A DNA stretch of 35,399 bases from positions 1 to 35,399 of the forward strand of contig JAFTMI010000021.1 in NCBI GenBank assembly GCA_017452505.1. Direction: 5' to 3'. The notes beneath the pieces are model-generated. The model did no database searches. It saw only the letters and a list, made by a program, of their open reading frames with translations, and was not told the origin of the DNA. This DNA comes from Oscillospiraceae bacterium. GTDB taxonomy: Bacteria > Bacillota > Clostridia > Oscillospirales > Oscillospiraceae. Both the position numbers and the translations under genes were made by a program. Below, one piece after another: positions 1,794 through 15,063 of the stretch (its first letter is position 1; the number at the start of each line of letters is the position of its first letter).

Positions 1794-2671
1794 CCCTTTT
1801 TTGCAAATTTTCGGCCCATTTTTTCCGCCGGCAGTTCTCCGGCCAAAGTGCTGCCCAAAATCAGTACCGCCCCCAGGATTCCCTGCCAGCCCAACGGTTC
1901 TTTCAGCCACAGGGCAGACAGCACGATGGCGATCACGGGGTCTAAGTAGCTGAACAGCGCCACCGTTTGGGAAGGAAGCTTTCCCAGCGCGCCAAAATAC
2001 AGCCCGTAGGCAATGCCCGTATGCACGATGCCCACCACCGCCAAAAGCGCATAATCCCTGCCGCTCATTTGGCTCATGCCAAAGCCTCCGGTCAGCAGGA
2101 CATAGGGCAAAATCACCACAGCAGCAGCGATAAGCTGCGCGATGGTTTTGTCGTATGCATTGATAGGGCCTAACTTCTTATTGAGGAACATCACCGTAGC
2201 GTACAGCACCGCAGCGCCCACGGCAAAAGCAATACCTTTGCTGCCGGAAATTCCGCCCTCCGGCACCCCGGACACAAACACCATACCTACCAGCGCCACG
2301 GCGCAAAGCAGGCTCTTTTTGAGCGTGAGCCGTTCGCCCAACAGGGGCGATGCCAGCACCAAAAACACCGGTGCCAAATAATAGCAGATGGTAGCCGTGG
2401 CCACAGAGGTATGGTTATAGCTTTCAAAGAGAAAAACCCAGTTAAGGCCCATTGCACCGCCGGACAGGAGCAGCACCCACAAATTCTTTTTCAGATTCTG
2501 CCATTGGATCTTTTTCCCTGTGACCGCCATGATCCCCAACAGAAAAAGCAACCCCAGCACGCCCCGGAAAAATGCTACCGTCGCGCCGGGCAGGGGGATA
2601 TAGCGCACAAAGATACCCACTGTGCCGAATATAGCCATTGCGGTCAGCAAGCTGCACTTTGCCTTGTTCAT
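1790..2671 (-). CDS. EamA/DMT-family permease
   Basis: Protein of 293 residues made almost wholly of about ten hydrophobic helices (for example AMAIFGTVGIFVRYI, GVLGLLFLLGIMAV, YALLAVVGIVHTGIAYGLYFG, AIVLSALWLKEPLGWQGI), the two-times-five-helix pattern of the drug/metabolite transporter superfamily (EamA repeats). The second-repeat signature LDPVIAIVLSALWLKE(P)L is typical. It sits in the cytoplasmic membrane and probably exports a small metabolite; the substrate is unknown. The start was set at ATG 2671 because it overlaps the TGA of the upstream pseudouridine synthase as ATGA, which implies translational coupling; an in-frame codon 5 residues earlier is less likely. Confidence 0.88.
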   Translation of the reverse strand: MNKAKCSLLTAMAIFGTVGIFVRYIPLPGATVAFFRGVLGLLFLLGIMAVTGKKIQWQNLKKNLWVLLLSGGAMGLNWVFLFESYNHTSVATATICYYLAPVFLVLASPLLGERLTLKKSLLCAVALVGMVFVSGVPEGGISGSKGIAFAVGAAVLYATVMFLNKKLGPINAYDKTIAQLIAAAVVILPYVLLTGGFGMSQMSGRDYALLAVVGIVHTGIAYGLYFGALGKLPSQTVALFSYLDPVIAIVLSALWLKEPLGWQGILGAVLILGSTLAGELPAEKMGRKFAKKG

Positions 2672-3261
2672 TCCTCTACACTCCATTCAGGCTCTTTTTG
2701 GAATACATACGCCTTCCCCTTATAGGGGAAGCTGATCCGCCGGGAAAACAGCATCGGTTCTTTTCTTTCATCCCGGCTGCCGTACTTATGATCACCCACC
2801 AAGGGGAATCCCCGGCTGGAAAACTGCACCCGGATCTGGTGGCTTCTGCCGGTATAGAGCCGGATATGCACCAAACTCCGCTCCCCAGCCTTTATAAGCT
2901 GATAGGTCAGCCGGGCGGCTTTCACCCCGGCTCTTTGCCGTTTCACCACGAAGACCTTATTCTTCCGGCTGTCCTTAAACAGCAAATCTTCCCAATCTCC
3001 CTCAGCAGGGGGTGTTCCGTGGACCAAGGCCACATATTCTTTCACCATTTCGTCCTTTGTTATGGCTGCGGACAATTCGGCGGCGGCTTTTTTGTTCCGG
3101 GCGAAAACCATCACGCCGCCCACATTTTTGTCCAGCCGGTGCAACGGAAAAATCTCTCCGCCCAGCTGCTCCCGGAGCGCCCCGGGCACTTGGCTTTCCG
3201 AATCCAGACCCACGGGCTTGACGCAGGCTACAAAGTCCCGGTTCTCGAACAAAATCTCCAC
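2668..3261 (-). CDS. RluA-family RNA pseudouridine synthase
   Basis: Cytoplasmic enzyme of 197 residues that isomerises uridine to pseudouridine in RNA. The catalytic motif HRLDKNVGG is at residues 41-49, with Asp44 as nucleophile (family consensus HRLDxxTSG, so the T-S positions are changed to N-V-G). Further signs are the early FVACVKPVGL, the VKEYVALVHG strand and the C-terminal HIRLYTGRSHQIRVQFSSRGFPLVGDHKYG. At under 200 residues it lacks the S4 domain of RluC/RluD and resembles the short RluA type. The start is GTG at 3261 with AGGAGG seven bases upstream. It is first of a two-gene operon with the EamA permease. Whether the target is rRNA or tRNA cannot be told. Confidence 0.92.
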   Translation of the reverse strand: MEILFENRDFVACVKPVGLDSESQVPGALREQLGGEIFPLHRLDKNVGGVMVFARNKKAAAELSAAITKDEMVKEYVALVHGTPPAEGDWEDLLFKDSRKNKVFVVKRQRAGVKAARLTYQLIKAGERSLVHIRLYTGRSHQIRVQFSSRGFPLVGDHKYGSRDERKEPMLFSRRISFPYKGKAYVFQKEPEWSVEE

Positions 3262-3283
3262 ACCGCCACCTCCTTTTGCTACC

Positions 3284-3311
3284 AGTATAGCAGAGATTTT
3301 CCTAAAGTCAA
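3284..3311 (-). promoter_or_regulatory. Promoter of the pseudouridine synthase/EamA operon
   Basis: TTGACT (3306-3311), 16-bp spacer, TATACT (3284-3289), about 22 bases before the GTG start. Confidence 0.75.
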
Positions 3312-3327
3312 AAGAAACAGGATTTTA

Positions 3328-3356
3328 TTGCAATTTTTTAGCCGTTTCAGTATAAT
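3328..3356 (+). promoter_or_regulatory. Promoter of the ABC exporter gene
   Basis: TTGCAA (3328-3333), exact 17-bp spacer, TATAAT (3351-3356). The resulting leader of about 60 nt contains the short palindromic repeat at 3369-3404. Confidence 0.8.
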
Positions 3357-3368
3357 AAGAGACAAAGA

Positions 3369-3404
3369 GATTGCCACGTCGCTGTGCTCCTCGCAATGAC
3401 GTGG
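3369..3404. repeat. REP-like intergenic palindrome, short form
   Basis: The unit contains ATTGC/GCAAT (3370-3374/3393-3397) nested with CCACGTC/GACGTGG (3374-3380/3398-3404), so two alternative foldings are possible. Read on the minus strand it shares the blocks GTCATTGCGA, CACAGCGACG and GTGGCAATCTC with the longer element at 13277-13424, so both are members of one repeat family. It lies in the 5' leader of the ABC exporter mRNA. Confidence 0.8.
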
Positions 3405-3422
3405 TTGTTTGGGAGGTTTACT

Positions 3423-5174
3423 ATGACCACGAAAGATTATCAGAGGAAACGGCCTCTGTTTATTTTCCTCAGTTATTTTAAGAATCACAAAAAGCTGTTT
3501 TTGGTGGATGTGTTGTGCGCCTGCCTGATCGCCGGCGTGGATCTGCTTTTTCCGCTGATCACCCGCAGCGCCCTTTATGATATGCTTCCCGGGAAGCTGT
3601 ACCGGACCTTCTTCATTGTGATGGTTGCGGTAGTAATTTGCTATGTTCTGCGCTCGCTCCTTAACTACATTGTGACCTTCTTTGGCCATATGTTCGGCGT
3701 GCGGGTAGAGGCAGATATCCGCAAGGATCTGTTTGCCCATATGCAGACCCTCAGCTTTGATTTCTATGACCGCAACCGCACCGGCAAGCTTATGTCCCGG
3801 CTTACTTCCGACCTGTTTGAATTGGTGGAGCTTGCCCACCACGGCCCGGAAGATCTGATCACCTCCACCCTTACCATCATTGGCGCGCTGATCGTCATGG
3901 GCAGCGTGCAATGGCAGCTGGCGGTGATCGTACTGCTGATGATCCCCCTTTTCCTCACCATCGTGATGTGTATGCGCCAGCGCATGAGCCGAGCCTCCGC
4001 CCTTTCCAAAGAAACCATGGGCCACATCAACCAGGAGATCGAATCCAGCCTGTCCGGTGTCCGCACCGCCAAGGCCTTTGCCAACGAGCAGGCGGAAAGC
4101 CAGCGTTTCCACAATGCCAACGAGCGATTCAAGACCGCCCGCCGGGATTTCTACAAAGCGATGGCCGTGTTTCACAGCTCCGTGGAATTTTTTCTGTGCA
4201 GCCTCAATGTGGTGGTCATCGGCGTGGGCGGCTACTATGTGATGAAGGGCTCTATGGACTACCGGGACCTGGTCACCTTCTGTCTGTATATCACATCCTT
4301 CGTTGGCCCTATGCGTAAGTTATCCGGTTTCTCCGAAATGTTCGCCAACGGCTTTGCAGGCCTCAAGCGCTTTGTGGAGGTTATGCGGATGGAACCCTCC
4401 GTGCAGGATAAGCCCAACGCACCCGACCTGGAGAATGTAAAGGGCGCGATTTCCGTGAAAGATGTGTCCTTTGCCTACGACGGCGATTTGGATGTGCTCC
4501 ACAATGTAAGCTTGGAAGTGAACCCCGGCGAGACCGTGGCAATCGTCGGCCCCTCCGGCGGCGGCAAAACAACATTATGTCAACTGATTCCCCGGTTCTA
4601 CGATGTATCCTCCGGCACTATCGCCATTGACGGCCAGGACATCCGGGATGTGACCCAAAGCTCCATTCATAAAAATATCGGCATTGTCCAGCAGGAGGTG
4701 TTCCTGTTCGCCGATACGATTTTTGAGAATATCCGCTATGGCAAGCCCGATGCCACCATGGAGGAGGTCATCGAGGCCGCCAAGAAAGCCGAGATTTACG
4801 AAGATATCCTGGCAATGCCTCAGGGCTTCCAGACCTATGTGGGCGAGCGTGGCACGCTCCTGTCCGGCGGACAGAAACAGCGTGTGGCTATCGCCCGGAT
4901 CTTCCTGAAGAATCCGCCCATTTTGATTTTGGACGAGGCAACCTCTGCATTGGACTCCGTCACCGAAGCCAAGATCCAGCGTGCCTTTGATGCCCTGTCC
5001 CAGGGTCGTACCACTTTGATCATTGCTCACCGGTTGTCCACCATCCGGGCGGCCCAGCGGATCGTGTCCATTGCCGACGGCAAGATCACCGAATGCGGCT
5101 CTCACGAGGAGCTGATGGCCCAGGGTGGCATCTACGCAAATCTTTATCAAACCCAAAATGCAACTTTTGCATAA
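3423..5174 (+). CDS. ABC exporter, fused membrane and ATPase domains
   Basis: Half-transporter of 583 residues that would work as a homodimer or with a partner. Residues about 1-320 form a six-helix type I exporter membrane domain (SLLNYIVTFFGHMFGVRVEADIRKDLF, then SFDFYDRNRTGKLMSRLTSDL coupling region). The nucleotide-binding domain holds Walker A GPSGGGKTT (376-384), Q-loop IGIVQQEVFLF, signature LSGGQKQR (480-487), Walker B ILILDE (500-505, catalytic Glu505) and H-loop IIAHRLST, all intact. The start at 3423 has GGGAGG six bases upstream; an earlier in-frame ATG lies inside the repeat and lacks a site. It is a single-gene unit with its own promoter. Relatives export lipids, drugs or peptides; nothing nearby shows the substrate. 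Confidence 0.95.
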   Translation: MTTKDYQRKRPLFIFLSYFKNHKKLFLVDVLCACLIAGVDLLFPLITRSALYDMLPGKLYRTFFIVMVAVVICYVLRSLLNYIVTFFGHMFGVRVEADIRKDLFAHMQTLSFDFYDRNRTGKLMSRLTSDLFELVELAHHGPEDLITSTLTIIGALIVMGSVQWQLAVIVLLMIPLFLTIVMCMRQRMSRASALSKETMGHINQEIESSLSGVRTAKAFANEQAESQRFHNANERFKTARRDFYKAMAVFHSSVEFFLCSLNVVVIGVGGYYVMKGSMDYRDLVTFCLYITSFVGPMRKLSGFSEMFANGFAGLKRFVEVMRMEPSVQDKPNAPDLENVKGAISVKDVSFAYDGDLDVLHNVSLEVNPGETVAIVGPSGGGKTTLCQLIPRFYDVSSGTIAIDGQDIRDVTQSSIHKNIGIVQQEVFLFADTIFENIRYGKPDATMEEVIEAAKKAEIYEDILAMPQGFQTYVGERGTLLSGGQKQRVAIARIFLKNPPILILDEATSALDSVTEAKIQRAFDALSQGRTTLIIAHRLSTIRAAQRIVSIADGKITECGSHEELMAQGGIYANLYQTQNATFA

Positions 5175-5181
5175 TTTCCCC

Positions 5182-5210
5182 TTGCTTTTTTTGAAAATAT
5201 GGTGTATAGT
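5182..5210 (+). promoter_or_regulatory. Promoter of tRNA-Leu
   Basis: TTGCTT (5182-5187), 17-bp spacer, TATAGT (5205-5210), 39 bases ahead of the mature tRNA 5' end. Confidence 0.75.
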
Positions 5211-5249
5211 ATGTGGGTAACTGAGAGCAATCCCGGTTATCCACCATCC

Positions 5250-5336
5250 GCCGGTGTGATGGAATTGGTAGACGTAGTGGACTCAAAATCCACCGATGGC
5301 GACATCGTGCCGGTTCGAGTCCGGCCACCGGCACCA
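5250..5336 (+). tRNA. tRNA-Leu(CAA)
   Basis: Acceptor GCCGGTG (5250-5256) / CACCGGC (5326-5332), anticodon stem GTGGA/TCCAC with loop CTCAAAA (anticodon CAA, leucine), a class II long variable arm (GATGGCGACATC), T-arm GGTTCGAGTCC, discriminator A and encoded CCA (5334-5336). The 87-nt length fits a leucine tRNA. The 3' part of this gene is partly repeated, inverted and direct, in the cassette that follows. Confidence 0.96.
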
Positions 5337-5338
5337 AA

Positions 5339-5373
5339 AATCCTCGACCCCCAAAGGGGGCCGGGGATTTTTT
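5339..5373 (+). terminator. Terminator of tRNA-Leu
   Basis: Stem AATCCTCGACCCCC (5339-5352) / GGGGGCCGGGGATT (5356-5369) with an AAA loop and one mismatch, followed by TTTT. The A-run on the left makes it potentially bidirectional. Confidence 0.9.
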
Positions 5374-5374
5374 A

Positions 5375-5544
5375 GTGCCGGTGGCCAGTCAGACTCGAAC
5401 CGAAGGTGAGAGTCTGGGGAGCGAGGCGACCGCCGCCAGTGGCGGAGGCAAGGGAGCCGAGTGAGTGGCAGTGATCGGTGAGCGAGGAAGGCGCTCCGTC
5501 GCCGACGAGAGCACCGAGCATCACAACAGGAACACCGGCACCAA
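5375..5544 (-). other. tRNA-Leu-linked palindromic cassette
   Basis: Directly after the terminator an inverted copy of the tRNA 3' part appears: GTGCCGGTGGCC (5375-5386) and GACTCGAACCG (5392-5402) are exact reverse complements of tRNA bases 5323-5334 and 5311-5321, with a 5-nt instead of 1-nt gap. At the far end CACCGGCACCAA (5533-5544) is a direct copy of tRNA bases 5326-5337. GTGCCGGTG (5375-5383) therefore pairs with CACCGGCAC (5533-5541) as a 9-bp terminal stem. The GC-rich core has internal pairings, for example CCGCC/GGCGG around 5431-5444 and GTGAT-CGGTG (5471-5480) with CACCG...ATCAC (5512-5525). No protein is supported. It could be a mobile-element scar, a MITE-like unit, or a structured RNA read from the minus strand. 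Confidence 0.7.
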
Positions 5545-5546
5545 TT

Positions 5547-5825
5547 CTATTTATTTTTCCTGCCATCCACAGCATCCTCAATGGTTGGCAAAAACTCCAA
5601 ATTTAATACATACTGCAACAATTCTTTGCTAAGATATTCCTTTGAAACAAAGCCATTCTCATTTGGTTCTTCGTAGATATAATTATCGCAAGCTGCCGTG
5701 TATGGGCGTTTTCTTTTAGGGCTTTCATATGTGCAGTGTCCACAATTCACCCGGAATATACGGCGCTTATCAAATGTGTAGTGCTGCCGAAAATATGTGC
5801 AGCTTTTGCAGGTATTATTTTCCAC
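5547..5825 (-). CDS. Small Cys-rich (two CxxC) protein
   Basis: Protein of 92 residues with CKSC near the N terminus and CGHC about 25 residues later, plus a further Cys in TAACDNY. Two CxxC pairs suggest a single zinc-binding knuckle; the rest is charged and soluble, with no membrane segment. Similar small proteins of unknown function seem to be common in Clostridia, but no function can be given. The start was set at GTG 5825, eight bases after GGAGG; an in-frame GTG three codons earlier sits on the binding site itself. It is divergent from the XRE regulator and shares its operator region, so it is likely under that regulator's control. Confidence 0.75.
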   Translation of the reverse strand: MENNTCKSCTYFRQHYTFDKRRIFRVNCGHCTYESPKRKRPYTAACDNYIYEEPNENGFVSKEYLSKELLQYVLNLEFLPTIEDAVDGRKNK

Positions 5826-5848
5826 CGTTATCACCTCCGAAGCTTATT

Positions 5849-5890
5849 TTAACCTGTTTCAGGTTAAAAGTCTATAATCTGTTTTAGGTT
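5849..5890. promoter_or_regulatory. Tandem operators between the divergent XRE and Cys-rich genes
   Basis: A perfect 19-bp palindrome TTAACCTGTTTCAGGTTAA (5849-5867) is followed 25 bp on (centre to centre) by a weaker copy AATCTGTTTTAGGTT (5876-5890). The second copy lies between the -35 TTGTAC (5894-5899) and -10 TATAGA (5871-5876, 17-bp spacer) of the minus-strand gene. This is the usual layout for repression by a small HTH protein; the XRE protein at 5919 is the obvious candidate. Confidence 0.8.
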
Positions 5891-5899
5891 AGTGTACAA
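5871..5899 (-). promoter_or_regulatory. Promoter of the Cys-rich gene
   Basis: TTGTAC (5894-5899), 17-bp spacer, TATAGA (5871-5876); the spacer is covered by the second operator copy. Confidence 0.6.
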
Positions 5900-5918
5900 T
5901 ATTTTGCGAGGTGATTTT

Positions 5919-6119
5919 ATGTACCAACGTATTCGTAGTCTTCGGGAAGACCGAGACCTAACACAGACACAAATCGCACAAATGCTGGGCATGTCACAAA
6001 CCGGCTATTCTAAATATGAAACCGGCGAAAATGACATTCCTACCTCCGTTTTAATTAAGCTCGCTGACTTTTATGGCACAACAACCGATTATCTTCTGGA
6101 AAGAACGGACAAGAAATAA
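5919..6119 (+). CDS. XRE-family HTH regulator
   Basis: Protein of 66 residues that is almost entirely one helix-turn-helix domain: RIRSLREDRDLTQTQIAQML, then GMSQTGYSKYETGENDIP (recognition helix) and LIKLADFYGTTTDYLLERTD. This is the classic phage-repressor-like (Cro/CI, XRE) fold; it binds DNA as a dimer. The start at 5919 has GAGGTG seven bases upstream. It has no sensor or protease domain, so how the signal is received is not visible. It probably represses itself and the divergent Cys-rich gene through the palindromes between them. Its own promoter is less clear (TACAAT at 5895-5900 without a good -35). Confidence 0.92.
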   Translation: MYQRIRSLREDRDLTQTQIAQMLGMSQTGYSKYETGENDIPTSVLIKLADFYGTTTDYLLERTDKK

Positions 6120-6140
6120 ATTTTCTGAGAAGCAAACATT

Positions 6141-6168
6141 AAGAACGACCCTCCCCGGTCGTTCTTTC
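6141..6168 (+). terminator. Terminator after the XRE gene
   Basis: Stem AAGAACGACC (6141-6150) / GGTCGTTCTT (6157-6166), CTCCCC loop, followed by TCTCGTTT; a good factor-independent terminator. Confidence 0.8.
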
Positions 6169-6194
6169 TCGTTTCCCCATTTCAACAATATATC

Positions 6195-6223
6195 TTGCAA
6201 CTTGCTAAATTTTATGATATACT
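6195..6223 (+). promoter_or_regulatory. Promoter of the CNNM/CBS operon
   Basis: TTGCAA (6195-6200), 17-bp spacer, TATACT (6218-6223). The leader of about 80 nt before the ATG holds a small hairpin AGCGC-TATCG-GCGCT, with no recognisable riboswitch. Confidence 0.8.
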
Positions 6224-6310
6224 GTCAGTTAATGGGTGGAGTATACCCTATTCCCCCTAAAAACAGCGCTATCGGCGCTTTCCAAAAAGGAAGGAGAACA
6301 CATCCATATT

Positions 6311-7348
6311 ATGGACGGAGACAGTAGTAGTTGGTTATTATTCGCAGCTTTAATTCTCTTGATTCTTGGCGGCGGCTATTTTGCTGCAGCTGAAACAGCT
6401 TTTGCCTCAGTAAACCCCATTCACATCAAACAGAGGGTTGAAAACGGCGAAAGAAAAGCCAAGCGGGCCCAGTATGTGCTGGATCACTTCAACAAGGCCC
6501 TCTCCACCCTGCTCATCGGCAACAACATTATGCACATCGGCACAGCATCCCTTGCCACCTACCTGGTGGTGGAAGTGCTGAAGCGCCCGGATCTTACCAC
6601 TGCCAGCACCCTGGTAACCACCGTGGTGGTATTCCTGGTGGCAGAAATGATCCCCAAGCAGTTTGCAAAGGATTGCCCCGAAGCTACCGCTTTGGCCTTT
6701 GCGCCCTCTCTTTCTTTGCTGATGAAGATTCTGACCCCCATCTCCGCATTTTTTGACGGACTTTCCGTTTTCGTATCCAAATTCTTCAATGTTGCTCCGG
6801 AGCCGGTCATCACCGAGGACGAGCTGATCGAAGCCATTGATTCTTTGGCCGAGAACGAAGAAAGCACCCCCGAGCGCCAGGAGCTTTTGCACTCTGCGCT
6901 GAAATTTGACGATGCCATCGTGTTTGACATTATGACCCCCCTGGATCAGGTGGAATGCGTGGAGATCGGTATGAAGCCGGAGGAGGTCTTGGCAATCGCC
7001 CGGGCCACCAAATATTCCAGACTCCCTGTTTATAAATCCACCAAGGATAACCTGGTTGGCCTTCTGAACATCCGAGATTATATCAAAGCCCATTTAGCTG
7101 CCCCCGGTACTGTAACCGTTTGGGAGCAGATGCATCCGGCTATGACAACCGACGATGCAAAGCAGATCGACGAGCTGTTTGACGAAATGAACCAGGCAAG
7201 AAGACATATGTGTCTGGTAACAAACAGCGAGTATAAGTATGTGGGCATTGTCACTATGGAAGATATCCTGGAGCAGCTGGTTGGCGAAATTTGGGACGAA
7301 GCTGATGAAGTCCCTGCCGAACTGCTCAGTGAGGAGGCTGCACAATGA
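6311..7348 (+). CDS. CNNM/CBS-pair membrane protein, short form
   Basis: Membrane protein of 345 residues. Residues about 1-180 form the CNNM (DUF21) transmembrane domain (LLFAALILLILGGGYFAAAETAFASVN, ALSTLLIGNNIMHIG, VVVFLVAEMIPKQFAKD), followed by two CBS domains (FDIMTPLDQVECVEI; HMCLVTNSEYKYVGIVTMEDILEQLVGEI). Relatives (CorC/MpfA/YfjD, 'hemolysin-like') act in Mg2+ efflux or homeostasis. It stops just after CBS2 and lacks the C-terminal CorC/HlyC domain that its downstream paralogue has. The start at 6311 has AAGGAGG 14 bases upstream, a rather long spacing. Its TGA overlaps the next ATG as ATGA, so the two are co-translated and may form a heterodimer. Confidence 0.92.
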   Translation: MDGDSSSWLLFAALILLILGGGYFAAAETAFASVNPIHIKQRVENGERKAKRAQYVLDHFNKALSTLLIGNNIMHIGTASLATYLVVEVLKRPDLTTASTLVTTVVVFLVAEMIPKQFAKDCPEATALAFAPSLSLLMKILTPISAFFDGLSVFVSKFFNVAPEPVITEDELIEAIDSLAENEESTPERQELLHSALKFDDAIVFDIMTPLDQVECVEIGMKPEEVLAIARATKYSRLPVYKSTKDNLVGLLNIRDYIKAHLAAPGTVTVWEQMHPAMTTDDAKQIDELFDEMNQARRHMCLVTNSEYKYVGIVTMEDILEQLVGEIWDEADEVPAELLSEEAAQ

Positions 7349-8607
7349 GTTATGTCTTAATAGCCTTCTTATTGGTTTGTTCTGCATTTTTCTCCTCTAC
7401 GGAAATCGCATTTGCCTCTGCCAACCCCTCCCGTTTGCGGAAAGCTGCAGAATCCGGTTCCAAAAGCGGAAAACGGGCGCTGCACATCAAAGAGCATTAC
7501 GACAAAGCTCTTTGCACCATCCTCATCGGCAACAACCTGGTAAACATCGCCTCTTCCTCCGTAGCCACCGTGATCGCGCTGGATCTTGTGGGCGATGCAG
7601 GCGTGGCTATTGCCACCGGTGTTATGACCGTGCTGCTGCTGATTTTCGGCGAGATTTTGCCCAAGCAGATGGCAAAGCAGTTCTGCGACAAATACGCCCT
7701 GTTCTCCGCGCCTCTGCTGCATCTGCTTTATAAGATCACCACGCCCCTCGTTTGGGTATTTATGAAGATGATCGCCCTGGTCTCCAAGGTATGGACCAAG
7801 GCCAAAACCGACGATTCCATCACCTATGACGACTTGATGACCATGGTGGAGATCGTCGAAGAAGAAGGCCTTTTGGAAGATACCAGCGTGGAGCTTTTGC
7901 AGGCTGCCATTGAATTTGACGATATCGAAGTCCACAAGGTCATCACCCACCGGGTAAATATGACCGCCCTGGATATTAACGATCCCATTGAAGAGTCTAT
8001 CCAGACCGCTTTGGCATCTGAATATTCCCGTATCCCCGTGTACGAAGACAGCATTGATAACATCATCGGCATCCTGCCTGTGAGTGTGTTGCTGAAAGCA
8101 TTGCTGGATAACCCCACTCCCGATATCCGCGCCATGCTCACCGAGCCTTTGTTCGTTCCCCAGACCAAGAATCTGCCGGAAGTTTTGGATCAAATGCGCC
8201 GAACCAAGTTCCACATGGCTGTGGTCACCGATGATTACGGCGGAACGCTGGGTATCGCCACTATGGAAGATATCCTGGAAGAGCTGGTGGGCGAAATTTG
8301 GGACGAGACCGACGAGATCGAGCCGGACATCGTGGAAGTCACCGAAGAGCATCTGCTGGTTGAAGGCGATATGCTGATGGTGGACTTCTTAGAGTACATT
8401 GAAGAGGAAGACCCGGAGTTGGACGGCGATTTTGCCACCGTAAACGGTTGGGTTACCGAGGTTTTGGACAAGTACCCCGAGGAAAACGACACCTTCCAGT
8501 ATCGGAACTATCAGATCACCGTGTTGGAAACCGACAATCTGTGCGCTTCCAAGCTGCAGATCATAAAGCTTCCCGACCCGGAAGAAGAGGAATCCGAAGA
8601 AGATTGA
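7345..8607 (+). CDS. CNNM/CBS-pair protein with CorC/HlyC domain
   Basis: Paralogue of 420 residues of the preceding gene, starting inside its stop codon (ATGA overlap). Order: CNNM membrane domain (FLLVCSAFFSSTEIAFASANPSR, LCTILIGNNLVNIAS, LLIFGEILPKQMAKQF), two CBS domains (HKVITHRVNMTALDI; HMAVVTDDYGGTLGIATMEDILEELVGEIWDE) and a full C-terminal transporter-associated domain (about 335-405, EGDMLMVDFLEYI ... TVNGWVTEVL), ending in an acidic tail. Both proteins share ETAFAS/EIAFAS, LIGNN and TMEDIL motifs. A role in divalent cation (Mg2+) export or sensing is inferred from the family only. Confidence 0.93.
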   Translation: MSYVLIAFLLVCSAFFSSTEIAFASANPSRLRKAAESGSKSGKRALHIKEHYDKALCTILIGNNLVNIASSSVATVIALDLVGDAGVAIATGVMTVLLLIFGEILPKQMAKQFCDKYALFSAPLLHLLYKITTPLVWVFMKMIALVSKVWTKAKTDDSITYDDLMTMVEIVEEEGLLEDTSVELLQAAIEFDDIEVHKVITHRVNMTALDINDPIEESIQTALASEYSRIPVYEDSIDNIIGILPVSVLLKALLDNPTPDIRAMLTEPLFVPQTKNLPEVLDQMRRTKFHMAVVTDDYGGTLGIATMEDILEELVGEIWDETDEIEPDIVEVTEEHLLVEGDMLMVDFLEYIEEEDPELDGDFATVNGWVTEVLDKYPEENDTFQYRNYQITVLETDNLCASKLQIIKLPDPEEEESEED

Positions 8608-8613
8608 TCGCTT

Positions 8614-8645
8614 AAAAAGAACGACCCTGTCGGGCCGTTCTTTTT
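8614..8645. terminator. Bidirectional terminator between CNNM operon and pyridoxal kinase
   Basis: AAAAAGAACG (8614-8623) pairs with CGTTCTTTTT (8636-8645); A- and T-runs on the two flanks let it serve both convergent genes. The arms resemble those of the 6141 terminator. Confidence 0.85.
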
Positions 8646-8647
8646 GT

Positions 8648-9478
8648 TTACTTCAGCATATGGATGAGGTCGCCCAAGGCGGTCTCGAACTTTGCGCCGT
8701 ACCAATGGGTGGGATCACCCTGGGAATTTTCAATGCACTTGACAGTGTAATCCGCTGCGATACAAGCGGCATTAAACACAGTCTTGTCATTCATCAAGGC
8801 ACCCACAAAGGCGGATGCGTAAATATCGCCGGTGCCGTGGCAGCCCTTTGCGATCTTATTGTGTACATAATAGTGGCACTTATTGTTCTCATAGACCAGC
8901 ACACCGGTCTTGCCGGCTTCATAGCTGACACCGGTAAGCACCACAGTCTTTGCGCCTAAGGCCAGAAGCTTCTCCACCAGAGCCGCAATATACGCCTCAT
9001 CGTAGACTTCCTTGTACTCTGTTCCGGTCAGGAAACAAGCCTCGGTGATGTTGGGCACAAGAATATCCGCCACACCGCACAGGTCCTTCATACCCTCTAC
9101 ATATTCCATATCAAAGATGGAATACAGCTGGCCATTGTCCGCCATAGCGGGGTCAACCACCCGGATGCAATCCTCTGTGCCCATCGTTTCCAAGATATTT
9201 TTTACATAGCCGATCTGCTTGAGGCTGCCTAAGTAGCCGGTGTAAATGGCGCTGAACTTGATGCCTTCCTTCTGCCAGTGGGCTTGAATGGCAGGCATAT
9301 CGTCGGTGAGATCCCGGAAAGTAAAGCCGCTGAAGCCGGCAGTGTGGGTGGAAAGAACCGCCGAAGGCAGAATGCAGGTCTCCAGACCGCAGGCGGACAG
9401 AATGGGAAGCGCCACCGTCAACGAGCATTGCCCCACGCAGGAAATATCCTGGATGGTGAGAATTTTTTTGTAAGCCAT
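8648..9478 (-). CDS. Pyridoxal/pyridoxamine kinase (PdxK/PdxY type)
   Basis: Cytoplasmic kinase of 276 residues of the ribokinase fold that phosphorylates B6 vitamers with ATP. Signs: N-terminal ILTIQDISCVGQCSLTVALPILSACG and LPSAVLSTHTAGFSGFTFRDLT, VVDPAMADNGQLY, ILVPNITEACFLTG, and the anion-hole motif GCHGTGD with catalytic Asp218. The length matches the family (about 280). The start ATG has AAGGAG eight bases upstream. It is divergent from a MocR-type regulator, and the overlapping promoters strongly suggest that regulator controls it. A close alternative is a kinase for another hydroxymethyl-pyrimidine-like substrate, but the STHTAGF and GQ(C)SL motifs favour pyridoxal. Confidence 0.9.
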   Translation of the reverse strand: MAYKKILTIQDISCVGQCSLTVALPILSACGLETCILPSAVLSTHTAGFSGFTFRDLTDDMPAIQAHWQKEGIKFSAIYTGYLGSLKQIGYVKNILETMGTEDCIRVVDPAMADNGQLYSIFDMEYVEGMKDLCGVADILVPNITEACFLTGTEYKEVYDEAYIAALVEKLLALGAKTVVLTGVSYEAGKTGVLVYENNKCHYYVHNKIAKGCHGTGDIYASAFVGALMNDKTVFNAACIAADYTVKCIENSQGDPTHWYGAKFETALGDLIHMLK

Positions 9479-9489
9479 ATTTCTTCTCC

Positions 9490-9518
9490 TTGCTATTTTG
9501 TTTTCCTTAGTTTATACT
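9490..9518 (+). promoter_or_regulatory. Promoter of the MocR-type regulator
   Basis: TTGCTA (9490-9495), 17-bp spacer, TATACT (9513-9518). Its -10 box overlaps the -10 box of the divergent kinase promoter. Confidence 0.65.
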
Positions 9519-9544
9519 ATAACTGATAATATAAAAATACCCAA
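9516..9544 (-). promoter_or_regulatory. Promoter of the pyridoxal kinase gene
   Basis: TTGGGT (9539-9544), 17-bp spacer, TATAGT (9516-9521). The near-palindrome AGTTTATACTATAACT (9509-9524) spans both -10 boxes and is a candidate regulator site. Confidence 0.65.
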
Positions 9545-9568
9545 AACAGGAGAAATATATATAACCAG

Positions 9569-10645
9569 ATGAAGTACAAAGTTGATAAAACCATCCGGCC
9601 TGCCTACCTGCAGATCTACAACCAAATCAAAGAGGACATCATTTCCGGGGTGCTGGACAGCAAGCTCCCCTCCAAGCGGCTGCTCTCAGACGAATTGGGG
9701 GTCAGCACCATCACCGTGGAACACGCCTACGCTCTTCTGGCTGACGAAGGCTATATCGAGCCCCGGGAGCGCAGCGGGTATTTTGTGATCTTTCAGCAGA
9801 CAGACGGGTTTTCCTTAGGCGAACCCACCGCGGCTGTACCCCAGTTTCAACCTAACCACAGCTACCCGGACTTCCCATTCTCCGTGCTGAGCAAGACTAT
9901 GCGGAATATCCTCTCCGTCTATGGAGAACGGATCTTGGAGAAATCCCCCGGTGAGGGCTGCGGGGAACTGAGAACCGCCCTTGCCCGGTACTTGGCGCGA
10001 AACCGGGGCTTGAATATCACCACCGAGCAGATCGTCATCGGCTCCGGTGCGGAATATCTCTATGGCCTCATTATCGAGCTGCTGGGCCGTGACCGGGTCT
10101 ACGGCATTGAAAAGCCCTCCTATGAGAAGATCGAGCAGGTTTACGGCGCGGCAGAGGTTTCTTTGGAGCATTTGCCTTTGTCCCACGATGGCATTGACAG
10201 CGTCGCCCTGGCCGCCACCACCGCCACCGTGCTGCATACCACCCCCTACCGCAGCTTCCCCAGCGGTGTCACCGCCTCCGCCTCCAAGCGGCATGAGTAT
10301 ATCCGTTGGGCGGAAAGGGGCAGATACATCATCGAGGACGATTTTGAGTCGGAGTTTTCCGTTTCCACCAAGGCTGAGGATACCCTGTTTTCCCTATCCA
10401 AATCCGATAATGTGATCTACCTGAACTCCTTTTCCAAGACCATCTCCCCCGCCCTGCGTATCGGCTATATGGTGCTGCCCAAGGCGTTGGTGCCTGCATT
10501 CCGGGAAAAGCTGGGCTTTTACTCCTGCACCGTTCCCACCTTTGAACAGCTGGTCATCGCCTCCCTGCTGGGTAGCGGCGACTTCGAGCGCCACATCAAC
10601 CGCGTCAGAAGAAAGCTAAGAAAGGCGCAACAAACAAAAGACTAA
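9569..10645 (+). CDS. MocR/PdxR-type GntR regulator, C-terminally truncated
   Basis: Protein of 358 residues: winged HTH of the GntR class (1-75: PAYLQIYNQIKEDIISGVL, LPSKRLLSDELGVSTITVEHAYALLADEGYIEPR) then a type I aminotransferase-like domain with IIEDDFESEF and the PLP Schiff-base Lys290 in NSFSKTISPALRIGYMVLP. Known MocR proteins run about 90-110 residues further; here homology ends at HINRVRRKLRK and six unrelated residues follow, with the stop codon inside a copy of tRNA-Val sequence. The C-terminal subdomain is therefore lost; whether the protein still works is unclear. The nearest start has AGGAGA 15 bases upstream, a poor spacing. Divergence from a pyridoxal kinase suggests an original PdxR role in vitamin B6 control. 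Confidence 0.85.
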   Translation: MKYKVDKTIRPAYLQIYNQIKEDIISGVLDSKLPSKRLLSDELGVSTITVEHAYALLADEGYIEPRERSGYFVIFQQTDGFSLGEPTAAVPQFQPNHSYPDFPFSVLSKTMRNILSVYGERILEKSPGEGCGELRTALARYLARNRGLNITTEQIVIGSGAEYLYGLIIELLGRDRVYGIEKPSYEKIEQVYGAAEVSLEHLPLSHDGIDSVALAATTATVLHTTPYRSFPSGVTASASKRHEYIRWAERGRYIIEDDFESEFSVSTKAEDTLFSLSKSDNVIYLNSFSKTISPALRIGYMVLPKALVPAFREKLGFYSCTVPTFEQLVIASLLGSGDFERHINRVRRKLRKAQQTKD

Positions 10646-10761
10646 TGGACTCGGTGCATTTTTACCTTCGGTAAAAATAAATGTAGCCACCAGTGTTTGC
10701 ACTGGTGGCAGGAACTGTCCACCGGACAGTTCCACTGCTATGGGTTCGAGTCCATTAGCCT
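10639..10761 (+). other. tRNA-Val-linked structured cassette, possible ncRNA
   Basis: A 12-bp perfect terminal stem is formed by CTAATGGACTCG (10642-10653) and CGAGTCCATTAG (10747-10758), both copies of the T-arm/acceptor region of the adjacent tRNA-Val. Inside are three perfect hairpins: ATTTTTACC/GGTAAAAAT (10658-10666/10670-10678), GCCACCAGTG/CACTGGTGGC (10686-10695/10700-10709, TTTG loop) and GGAACTGTCC/GGACAGTTCC (10711-10720/10724-10733). Before the closing strand runs GGTTCGAGTCC, a T-loop-like sequence. The result is a stem with three arms, and a bidirectional terminator (10772-10816) follows. Its left edge coincides with the truncated end of the MocR gene. It may be a mobile-element remnant, a MITE-like unit or a transcribed structured RNA; no promoter of its own is seen. 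Confidence 0.75.
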
Positions 10762-10771
10762 AAATACCGAT

Positions 10772-10816
10772 ACCAAAAGAAAAAACCTACCCGGTTGGGT
10801 AGGTTTTTCTTTTGGT
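10772..10816. terminator. Bidirectional terminator beside tRNA-Val
   Basis: A very long inverted repeat with 20 paired positions and one bulge: left arm 10772-10792 (begins ACCAAAAGAAAAAACC), right arm 10797-10816, GGTT loop. The right arm includes the complement of the tRNA ACCA end, so the palindrome reaches into the tRNA gene. It can end transcription from both sides. Confidence 0.9.
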
Positions 10817-10889
10817 GGAGACTAATGGACTCGAACCATCGACCTCATGCGTGTGAAGCATGCGCTCTAACCAGCTGAGCTAAGCCTCC
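10813..10889 (-). tRNA. tRNA-Val(CAC)
   Basis: Minus strand: acceptor GGAGGCT/AGTCTCC, D-arm AGCTCAGCTGGTTAGAGC, anticodon stem CATGC/GCATG with loop TTCACAC (anticodon CAC, valine), T-arm ATGGTTCGAGTCCAT, discriminator A and encoded CCA (10813-10815). It is a single gene with its own promoter. Its T-arm sequence recurs twice in the cassette downstream. Confidence 0.96.
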
Positions 10890-14950: not shown

Positions 14951-15063
14951 GCCTTCCCCTCGAGGGGAAGGTGCCCCAGTGCACACACTGGGGCGGATGA
15001 GGTGTTTTTTACTTTCCACCTCATCAGTCACCTACGGTGACAGCTTCTCCTCAAGGAGAAGCC
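14951..15063. repeat. Multi-hairpin intergenic repeat, copy 1
   Basis: A 113-bp chain of hairpins: CCTTCCCCT/AGGGGAAGG, GCCCCAGTG/CACTGGGGC (approximate), GATGAGGTG/CACCTCATC across a T-rich loop, GTCACC/GGTGAC, and CTTCTCCT/AGGAGAAG. It starts with GCCTTCCCC and ends with AGGAGAAGCC. The ends and GGATGAGGTG block are shared with 20785-20929. No coding capacity; it is a non-autonomous palindromic repeat of the kind frequent in gut Clostridia. Confidence 0.85.

What the first reader, a model, noticed from the sequence alone, without database searches (positions are those of the whole stretch)
10639..10816. tRNA-Val-linked cassette folds as a stem with three perfect hairpins
Between the MocR gene and tRNA-Val lies a 123-base block with a 12-bp perfect terminal stem (10642-10653/10747-10758) built from two opposite copies of the tRNA's T-arm/acceptor sequence. 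It encloses three perfect hairpins of 9, 10 and 10 bp with 3-4 nt loops, then a T-loop-like GGTTCGAGTCC, then a bidirectional terminator. Only one base separates hairpins 2 and 3. This is far more structure than chance gives in 123 bases and resembles an enlarged tRNA cloverleaf. It may be a structured RNA, a substrate of a recombinase that acts on hairpin DNA, or a MITE-like repeat. The function is inference.
Basis: partly seen in the sequence, partly recalled or inferred. Interest (0 to 1): 0.75.

Follow-up and report, generated by a model that had tools for sequence, protein, structure and literature searches.

The report
Mobile DNA hairpin units behind tRNAs
A gut bacterium carries a short DNA unit made almost wholly of hairpins right behind a tRNA gene; similar units sit behind many other tRNA genes in its relatives, each carrying a copy of that gene's own tail, and sister species differ by whole units, which points to an undescribed kind of mobile or exchangeable DNA module.

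Summary
The structure is real, but it is neither unique nor likely an RNA. It is one copy of a repeated DNA unit of about 140-160 bp: bidirectional terminator, inverted copy of the host tRNA's 3' part (IR), hairpins C, B, A, then a direct repeat of the tRNA 3' end (DR). Of 100 units counted, 66 lie within 80 nt of a tRNA or tmRNA 3' end (28 kinds), 24 lie farther behind one, and 10 have none in the stretch. Ends follow the host tRNA; cores are most alike within a genome. Stems covary strongly (98.5% of 1885 cells paired) with few wobble pairs, as expected for DNA palindromes. In a sister species the window's own locus holds another core, swapped at the T-loop, and a tRNA-Ser locus differs by an exact 161 bp, a 141-bp unit plus a 20-bp repeat. 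Arrays occur; some hold genes between units, including restriction-Shedu and ParE toxin genes. Best reading: integrase-less cassettes moved in trans at tRNA ends, integron-like in layout. No enzyme was found: no integron integrase reached cut-off in 61 genomes, and 8 of 11 unit-bearing genomes lack a reverse transcriptase.

The parts
10813..10889 (-). tRNA-Val(CAC), host gene of the unit
   Evidence: ARAGORN; Rfam tRNA 67.9 bits
10813..10834 (-). proximal direct repeat: last 22 nt of the tRNA (T55-A76), part of the gene
   Evidence: sequence
10772..10816 (.). bidirectional terminator palindrome, reaching into the tRNA CCA
   Evidence: inverted repeats I2 and I4
10743..10761 (+). IR: inverted copy of the tRNA T-arm/acceptor strand (95% complementary over 19 nt)
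   Evidence: inverted repeat I1
10711..10733 (.). hairpin C (10 bp, loop 3; on the tRNA strand its tip is CCGGTGG)
   Evidence: covariation
10686..10709 (.). hairpin B (10 bp, loop 4, tip CCAGTGTTTGCACTGG)
   Evidence: covariation
10658..10678 (.). hairpin A (9 bp, loop 3), absent from some units
   Evidence: presence varies
10639..10653 (+). distal direct repeat of the tRNA 3' part (15 nt here, 20-22 nt in many other units); overlaps the MocR stop codon
   Evidence: direct repeat D1
10639..10812 (.). whole unit as found here (distal repeat to terminator)
   Evidence: boundaries by analogy with the exact 141-bp unit of tRNA-Ser
5250..5336 (+). tRNA-Leu(CAA), host of a second, divergent unit in this window
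5375..5401 (+). inverted copy of the tRNA-Leu 3' part (IR of the second unit, imperfect)
   Evidence: read by eye
5430..5445 (+). short hairpin with tip CCAGTGG in the second unit; rest of its core unlike R1 and R2
   Evidence: read by eye; no R1 match there
5533..5543 (+). partial direct repeat of the tRNA-Leu 3' end
   Evidence: read by eye

Best explanation
The feature is one copy of a family of non-autonomous DNA cassettes that are gained, lost and exchanged at the 3' ends of tRNA and tmRNA genes by an enzyme acting in trans. Shown: (1) a unit is terminator, IR, hairpin C, hairpin B, often hairpin A, DR, directly behind a tRNA; (2) DR, and less strictly IR, match the particular tRNA, while cores are most alike within a genome; (3) core stems stay near-perfect Watson-Crick palindromes while their sequence changes; (4) at orthologous loci of two sister species units are present or absent, single or tandem, or hold another core, with breakpoints at the T-loop and the CCA end; (5) some arrays hold genes between units. 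Inferred: (6) when one DNA strand folds, IR pairs with DR, so the closed site shows a duplex copy of the T-arm, the same duplex the target gene offers, with the hairpins as landmarks for the enzyme; (7) strand exchange in the T-loop adds a unit next to the tRNA and regenerates the gene's end; (8) the IR comes to match a new target either by copying of the tRNA tail during insertion (fold-back at a terminator) or by later perfection of the imperfect palindrome through template switching. Steps 6-8 were not tested.
For: 66 of 100 counted matches within 80 nt of a tRNA/tmRNA end on the expected strand, 28 kinds. DR over tRNA positions 61-76 matches its own tRNA at 14 or more of 16 in 39 of 66, against 0.6% for other tRNAs; IR 14 of 66 against 0.7%. 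Core similarity within a genome across tRNAs 0.493, same tRNA across genomes 0.380, neither 0.334; genome-label shuffles 0 of 1000, tRNA-label shuffles 27 of 1000. Covariation with scarce wobble on either strand. Exact 161-bp difference at tRNA-Ser, the unit nearest the tRNA, 141 bp plus a 20-bp repeat. Core swap at the window's own locus. Occupied against emptier sites at tRNA-Arg and tRNA-His. Tandem arrays. Genes between repeated units, with complete flanking units in L060, L061 and L063. Patchy spread: 18 of 300 genomes, 12 of 106 genera.
Against: No enzyme, circle or movement seen. The 161-bp difference could be a deletion by recombination between the repeats rather than an insertion. Only one sister pair was compared. 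Same-tRNA similarity across genomes also slightly exceeds chance (27 of 1000 shuffles), so some units are probably inherited in place. Many IRs are imperfect (own-tRNA match 11 or more of 13 in 14 of 66) and 10 of 100 matches have no tRNA in the stretch. In L059 and L062 the unit behind the cargo lacks a recognisable DR, so cassette status is weaker there. The draft is 82.5% complete with 6.1% contamination, and metagenome assemblies may misplace repeats.
Confidence: 0.52

Rival explanations
1. Attachment-site debris: ends of ordinary tRNA-targeting integrative elements, multiplied by homologous recombination between the repeats and kept palindromic by replication template switching (quasi-palindrome correction). 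No dedicated cassette system exists.
For: Ordinary islands do use these tRNAs: the 8.75-kb insertion with two recombinase-like ORFs in the G083 tRNA-Val, a large serine recombinase at the unit in L223 and similar ORFs at two more loci, prophage-like contigs beside units. The tRNA-Ser difference fits loss between repeats. Paired changes in both arms between orthologous tRNA-Tyr units fit palindrome correction.
Against: Cores alike across many different tRNAs of one genome need movement or conversion; core swap at the T-loop boundary; units of conserved layout behind 28 tRNA kinds.
Confidence: 0.25
2. A structured RNA made from the unit, for example one regulating or mimicking the tRNA.
For: Very stable RNA fold, strong covariation, a terminator at one end.
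Against: G.T 15 and A.C 9 against 1841 Watson-Crick cells: pairs that RNA tolerates are not preferred. No Rfam family above its gathering score except tRNA. Presence/absence and core exchange between sister species. No transcript data were available.
Confidence: 0.07
3. RNA-templated insertion: a reverse transcriptase copies the 3' half of a pre-tRNA, primed by its terminator hairpin, giving the inverted copy, and joins it to a core transcript.
For: In two units the inverted copy matches 36 of 36 nt through T-arm, CCA and trailer (L062 Arg, L207 Leu); IR and DR both end in the T-loop.
Against: No reverse transcriptase in 8 of 11 unit-bearing genomes searched, while 1 of 7 genomes taken as unit-free has one. 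The same terminator recurs behind the distal repeat in only 6 of 54 units, some of them tandem arrays. Scarce wobble.
Confidence: 0.06
4. A REP or other palindrome family moved by a Y1 (RAYT or IS200/IS605-like) transposase.
For: Hairpin B's tip is shared with a REP-like palindrome of related genomes; Y1-like genes exist in the own genome.
Against: No Y1_Tnp match at E 0.01 in two of five unit-rich genomes. The RAYT-like gene examined is flanked by another palindrome (by eye). Direct repeats of the target are not expected of this class (recalled).
Confidence: 0.05

Closest known systems
Integron gene cassettes and attC sites
   Same: Arrays; genes followed by a foldable site made of imperfect inverted repeats; most picked cargo ORFs in one orientation; the extra unit in tRNA-Ser lies next to the fixed platform; sites alike within a genome.
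   Different: Platform is any tRNA end, not attI; the stem is a copy of each target; units without genes are common; no integron integrase over cut-off in 61 genomes.
tRNA-targeting genomic islands (tyrosine integrases)
   Same: Direct repeat of the tRNA 3' end flanks the insert and the gene stays whole.
   Different: About 140 bp, no integrase gene, many tRNA kinds in one genome, target-matched inverted copy.
MITEs, REP/BIME palindromes
   Same: Short, non-coding, multicopy, palindromic, presumably moved in trans.
   Different: Confined mostly to tRNA ends; ends change with the target; RAYT link not supported.
CRISPR arrays and casposons (recalled)
   Same: Long duplicated target segment, growth next to a leader-like flank; casposons can use tRNA 3' ends.
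   Different: Inverted copy of the target and hairpin core are not part of those systems; Cas1 was not searched for here.

Membership tests
Integron cassette/attC | integron integrase (IntI) in the genome | tested here: not met
   TIGR02249 over its cut-off in 0 of 61 genus genomes; 8 of 9 own tyrosine recombinases scanned, none reaches it
Integron cassette/attC | foldable recombination site with outer inverted arms and array growth at a fixed platform | tested here: inconclusive
   layout and fold present; recombination not observed
Integron cassette/attC | one gene per cassette before the site | tested here: inconclusive
   genes between units at five loci, complete units on both sides in L060, L061, L063 only; many units have no gene
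tRNA-targeting genomic island | direct repeat of the tRNA 3' end at both ends of the insert | tested here: met
   39 of 66 with 14 or more of 16 nt; exact in tRNA-Ser
tRNA-targeting genomic island | integrase gene inside the element | tested here: not met
   the 141-bp unit has no room for a gene; in the units the stretch from tRNA to DR is likewise short
MITE | terminal inverted repeats belonging to the element, plus target duplication | tested here: inconclusive
   target repeat present; the inverted arms change with the target instead of being fixed
REP/RAYT | resident RAYT/Y1 transposase flanked by the same palindrome | tested here: inconclusive
   Y1_Tnp in 3 of 5 genomes at E 0.01, over cut-off in 2; one RAYT-like gene flanked by another palindrome
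Structured RNA (Rfam) | match to a described family | tested here: not met
   only tRNA over gathering score
Structured RNA (any) | transcript; wobble pairs tolerated on one strand | tested here: inconclusive
   wobble scarce on both strands; transcription not testable here
Retroelement | reverse transcriptase in carrier genomes | tested here: not met
   absent from 8 of 11 unit-bearing genomes
Casposon/CRISPR | Cas1-type integrase | not tested

The most novel reading that the evidence does not exclude
tRNA genes of these bacteria act as scattered docking sites of an undescribed cassette-capture system: single-stranded DNA cassettes fold so that a copy of the tRNA T-arm closes them, an unknown recombinase of broad T-arm specificity joins them to almost any tRNA gene without damaging it, the cassette ends are rewritten to match the new tRNA, and the arrays collect defence and other genes.
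Probability: 0.33. Interest if true: 0.95.

Novelty: new variant of a known kind. Interest (0 to 1): 0.77.

Why it matters
A small element whose ends are those of whichever tRNA it sits behind departs from the usual pattern of one integrase for one tRNA site. If it moves as inferred, it is an integron-like way of gathering genes, with restriction, Shedu and toxin genes among the cargo, in gut Clostridia where no integron integrase reached cut-off. It makes a sharp question testable: how does a mobile DNA acquire an inverted copy of each new target? It also shows very strong covariation that is probably due to DNA folding, a caution for finding RNAs by covariation alone.

Tried and rejected
Rfam at gathering and relaxed thresholds: only tRNA above a gathering score. 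MocR truncation by the unit: not supported; its four closest homologues have no tRNA nearby, so they gave no empty site. Phage and plasmid collections: no match. Viral contigs: three contigs with units, at least two with phage-like ORFs by eye, no enzyme identified. Clustering 684 neighbouring ORFs: the recurrent clusters look by eye like chromosomal neighbours, apart from a large serine recombinase at 3 loci. Resident integron integrase, Y1 transposase, reverse transcriptase. An early idea that the tRNA's native terminator is always duplicated was weakened: it recurs behind the distal repeat in 6 of 54 units by script, some of them tandem arrays, and differs in the cleanest case. Literature: six answered searches; I saw listings and starts of abstracts only, opened no paper, and none of the listed titles describes such units. 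Most subscription papers and all preprints are outside that library.

Limits. Loci were not random: from the listing (which says more matches exist) I fetched the stronger matches and spaced pairs, plus some named contigs. Of the 103 matches, one search counted 100: two were dropped as copies (L005 is the same stretch as L075) and one (L072:1875-1938) was lost by a typing slip. The 22 genome labels include five named contigs that may belong to genomes also held under a G handle. The alignment was fitted to the model's structure, which favours pairing; for the G.T against A.C count this bias works against my conclusion. Functions said to be 'by eye' rest on no call.

Full report
The observation. 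The block folds far below shuffled controls with DNA (z -9.7) and RNA parameters (z -8.4). The stem arms are copies of the 3' part of the neighbouring tRNA-Val(CAC): a direct one (10639-10653) and an inverted one (10743-10761).

A repeat family. A DNA search of the draft genome gave 12 matches, two of them at the window locus itself. A covariance model of hairpins B and C (R1, 65 nt, from 7 copies) gives 22 matches at E up to 1 in the own genome, 15 below 0.02, the window included. Of 60 genomes (the own one counted) 28 have matches, all among the 37 of the same genus; none of the 23 from other families of the order has one. Of 300 genomes of the family 18 match, in 12 of 106 genera, some only weakly. 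I do not name the genus.

Anatomy. Read on the tRNA strand a unit is: tRNA ending in CCA, bidirectional terminator, IR, hairpin C, hairpin B, often hairpin A, then DR, the tRNA's positions 55-76 again. Of 100 matches counted, 66 lie within 80 nt of a tRNA or tmRNA end on the expected strand, 18 at 81-600 nt, 6 at 601-6000 nt, and 10 have no tRNA in the stretch; one has a tRNA in the opposite arrangement within 200 nt. The directly placed units cover 28 tRNA kinds, tmRNA included, under 22 genome labels.

Ends follow the target, cores follow the genome. DR over tRNA positions 61-76 matches its own tRNA at 14 or more of 16 in 39 of 66 units, against 0.6% of comparisons with other tRNAs. The IR signal is weaker but points the same way: 14 of 66 against 0.7%. 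Core similarity is 0.493 within a genome between different tRNAs (125 pairs), 0.380 between genomes at the same tRNA (75) and 0.334 with neither shared (1944). Shuffled genome labels never reach the first value (0 of 1000); shuffled tRNA labels reach the second in 27 of 1000, so a weaker signal of inheritance in place is also there.

DNA rather than RNA. On 98 distinct sequences 98.5% of 1885 cells pair, 17 of 20 pairs show changes on both sides, and sliding the partner by 1-3 columns drops pairing to 28-40%. Counted by type: 1841 Watson-Crick, 15 G.T, 9 A.C, 20 other. Wobble is scarce on either strand, as expected if selection or repair acts on a DNA palindrome.

Sister species. G083 is 92-97% identical to the own genome in most shared stretches. 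At the window's own locus it has the same flanks, terminator, IR and DR, but between them another core (type II), exchanged at GACTCG/CGAGTC. An insertion of about 8.75 kb, with two ORFs that look like tyrosine recombinases, has there entered the tRNA and parted it from the unit. At tRNA-Ser(GGA) the genomes differ by 161 bp: a 141-bp unit plus a 20-bp repeat, next to the tRNA. With one period taken out in a script, 1064 of 1113 aligned columns agree; in the compared 1.15 kb the only other internal gap over 5 nt is one of 13 nt. At tRNA-Arg(TCT) G083 is empty and the own genome occupied, with other differences nearby; at tRNA-His they have two units and one. Of 30 tRNA-Tyr loci of the genus, 8 hold a type II core (model R2), at least 3 a type I-like core next to the tRNA, and by eye most others show no unit in the 420 nt printed. 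The orthologous tRNA-Tyr units of the sister species differ by paired changes in both arms of hairpin C.

Arrays and cargo. Tandem units occur, e.g. with periods of 157 bp (L242) and 139 bp (L071). At five loci genes lie between cores. L061: HaeIII-type endonuclease, two cytosine methylases, Shedu SduA. L063: ParE toxin and a Phd/YefM-like partner below the Pfam cut-off. L059: a histidine kinase and, by eye, a response regulator. L060: three ORFs without Pfam match. L062: lipid enzymes by eye. The 13 ORFs I picked there lie on the tRNA strand. Complete units flank the genes in L060, L061 and L063; in L059 and L062 the far unit lacks a clear DR. L221 has AbiE-like genes, by eye, beside a unit near a contig start. 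Whether these are cassettes or islands caught between units is open.

Mechanism. The layout is that of an integron cassette: cargo, then a foldable site, in arrays at a fixed platform. Here the platform would be the tRNA T-arm, and pairing of IR with DR would make the folded site show the same duplex. That step, the enzyme and the origin of the matched IR are inferred. No integron integrase reaches its cut-off in 61 genomes; 8 of 11 unit-bearing genomes have no reverse transcriptase; two of five unit-rich genomes have no Y1 match. I therefore file the family under none of these and say only that it works most like an integron cassette. Direction of change at tRNA-Ser is not known, and a reading as attachment-site debris kept palindromic by repair stays a serious rival.

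Second unit in the window. Behind tRNA-Leu(CAA) (5250-5336) a divergent unit can be read by eye: terminator, imperfect inverted copy of the tRNA end (5375-5401), a hairpin with tip CCAGTGG (5430-5445) and a partial repeat (5533-5543).

Verdict. A real, multicopy, tRNA-linked DNA hairpin unit that differs between sister species and appears in no title listed by six paper searches (listings only). It joins marks of tRNA-site integration with those of folded-site cassettes and adds a target-matched inverted copy that, as far as I recall, neither has.

Noticed in passing
window 5250-5543: A second, divergent unit behind tRNA-Leu(CAA), read by eye; R1 did not find it.
   Followed up: partly
window 14952-14994; L077-L156: A REP-like palindrome whose centre is the hairpin CCAGTG...CACTGG, the same tip as hairpin B; several repeat families of these bacteria seem to exchange hairpin tips.
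   Followed up: partly
L326 (G083) about 2040-10790: About 8.75 kb inserted in the tRNA-Val of the sister species, with two tyrosine-recombinase-like ORFs by eye and a 52-bp repeat of the tRNA.
   Followed up: partly
L371 about 9860-10100; L036/L215: Short tandem repeats that join a piece of the tRNA 3' end to a mini-hairpin, just behind a unit.
   Followed up: no
L223 2126-3883 (tRNA-strand coordinates); L096; L333: A large serine recombinase beside units; in L223 its gene ends at a copy of the tRNA CCA end.
   Followed up: no
L340 392-937 (own genome, contig C20): RAYT-like gene flanked by a classical-looking palindrome different from the units.
   Followed up: partly
G000 contigs C51 and C68: The same unit-bearing stretch appears on two contigs of the draft, probably an assembly duplicate.
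   Followed up: no
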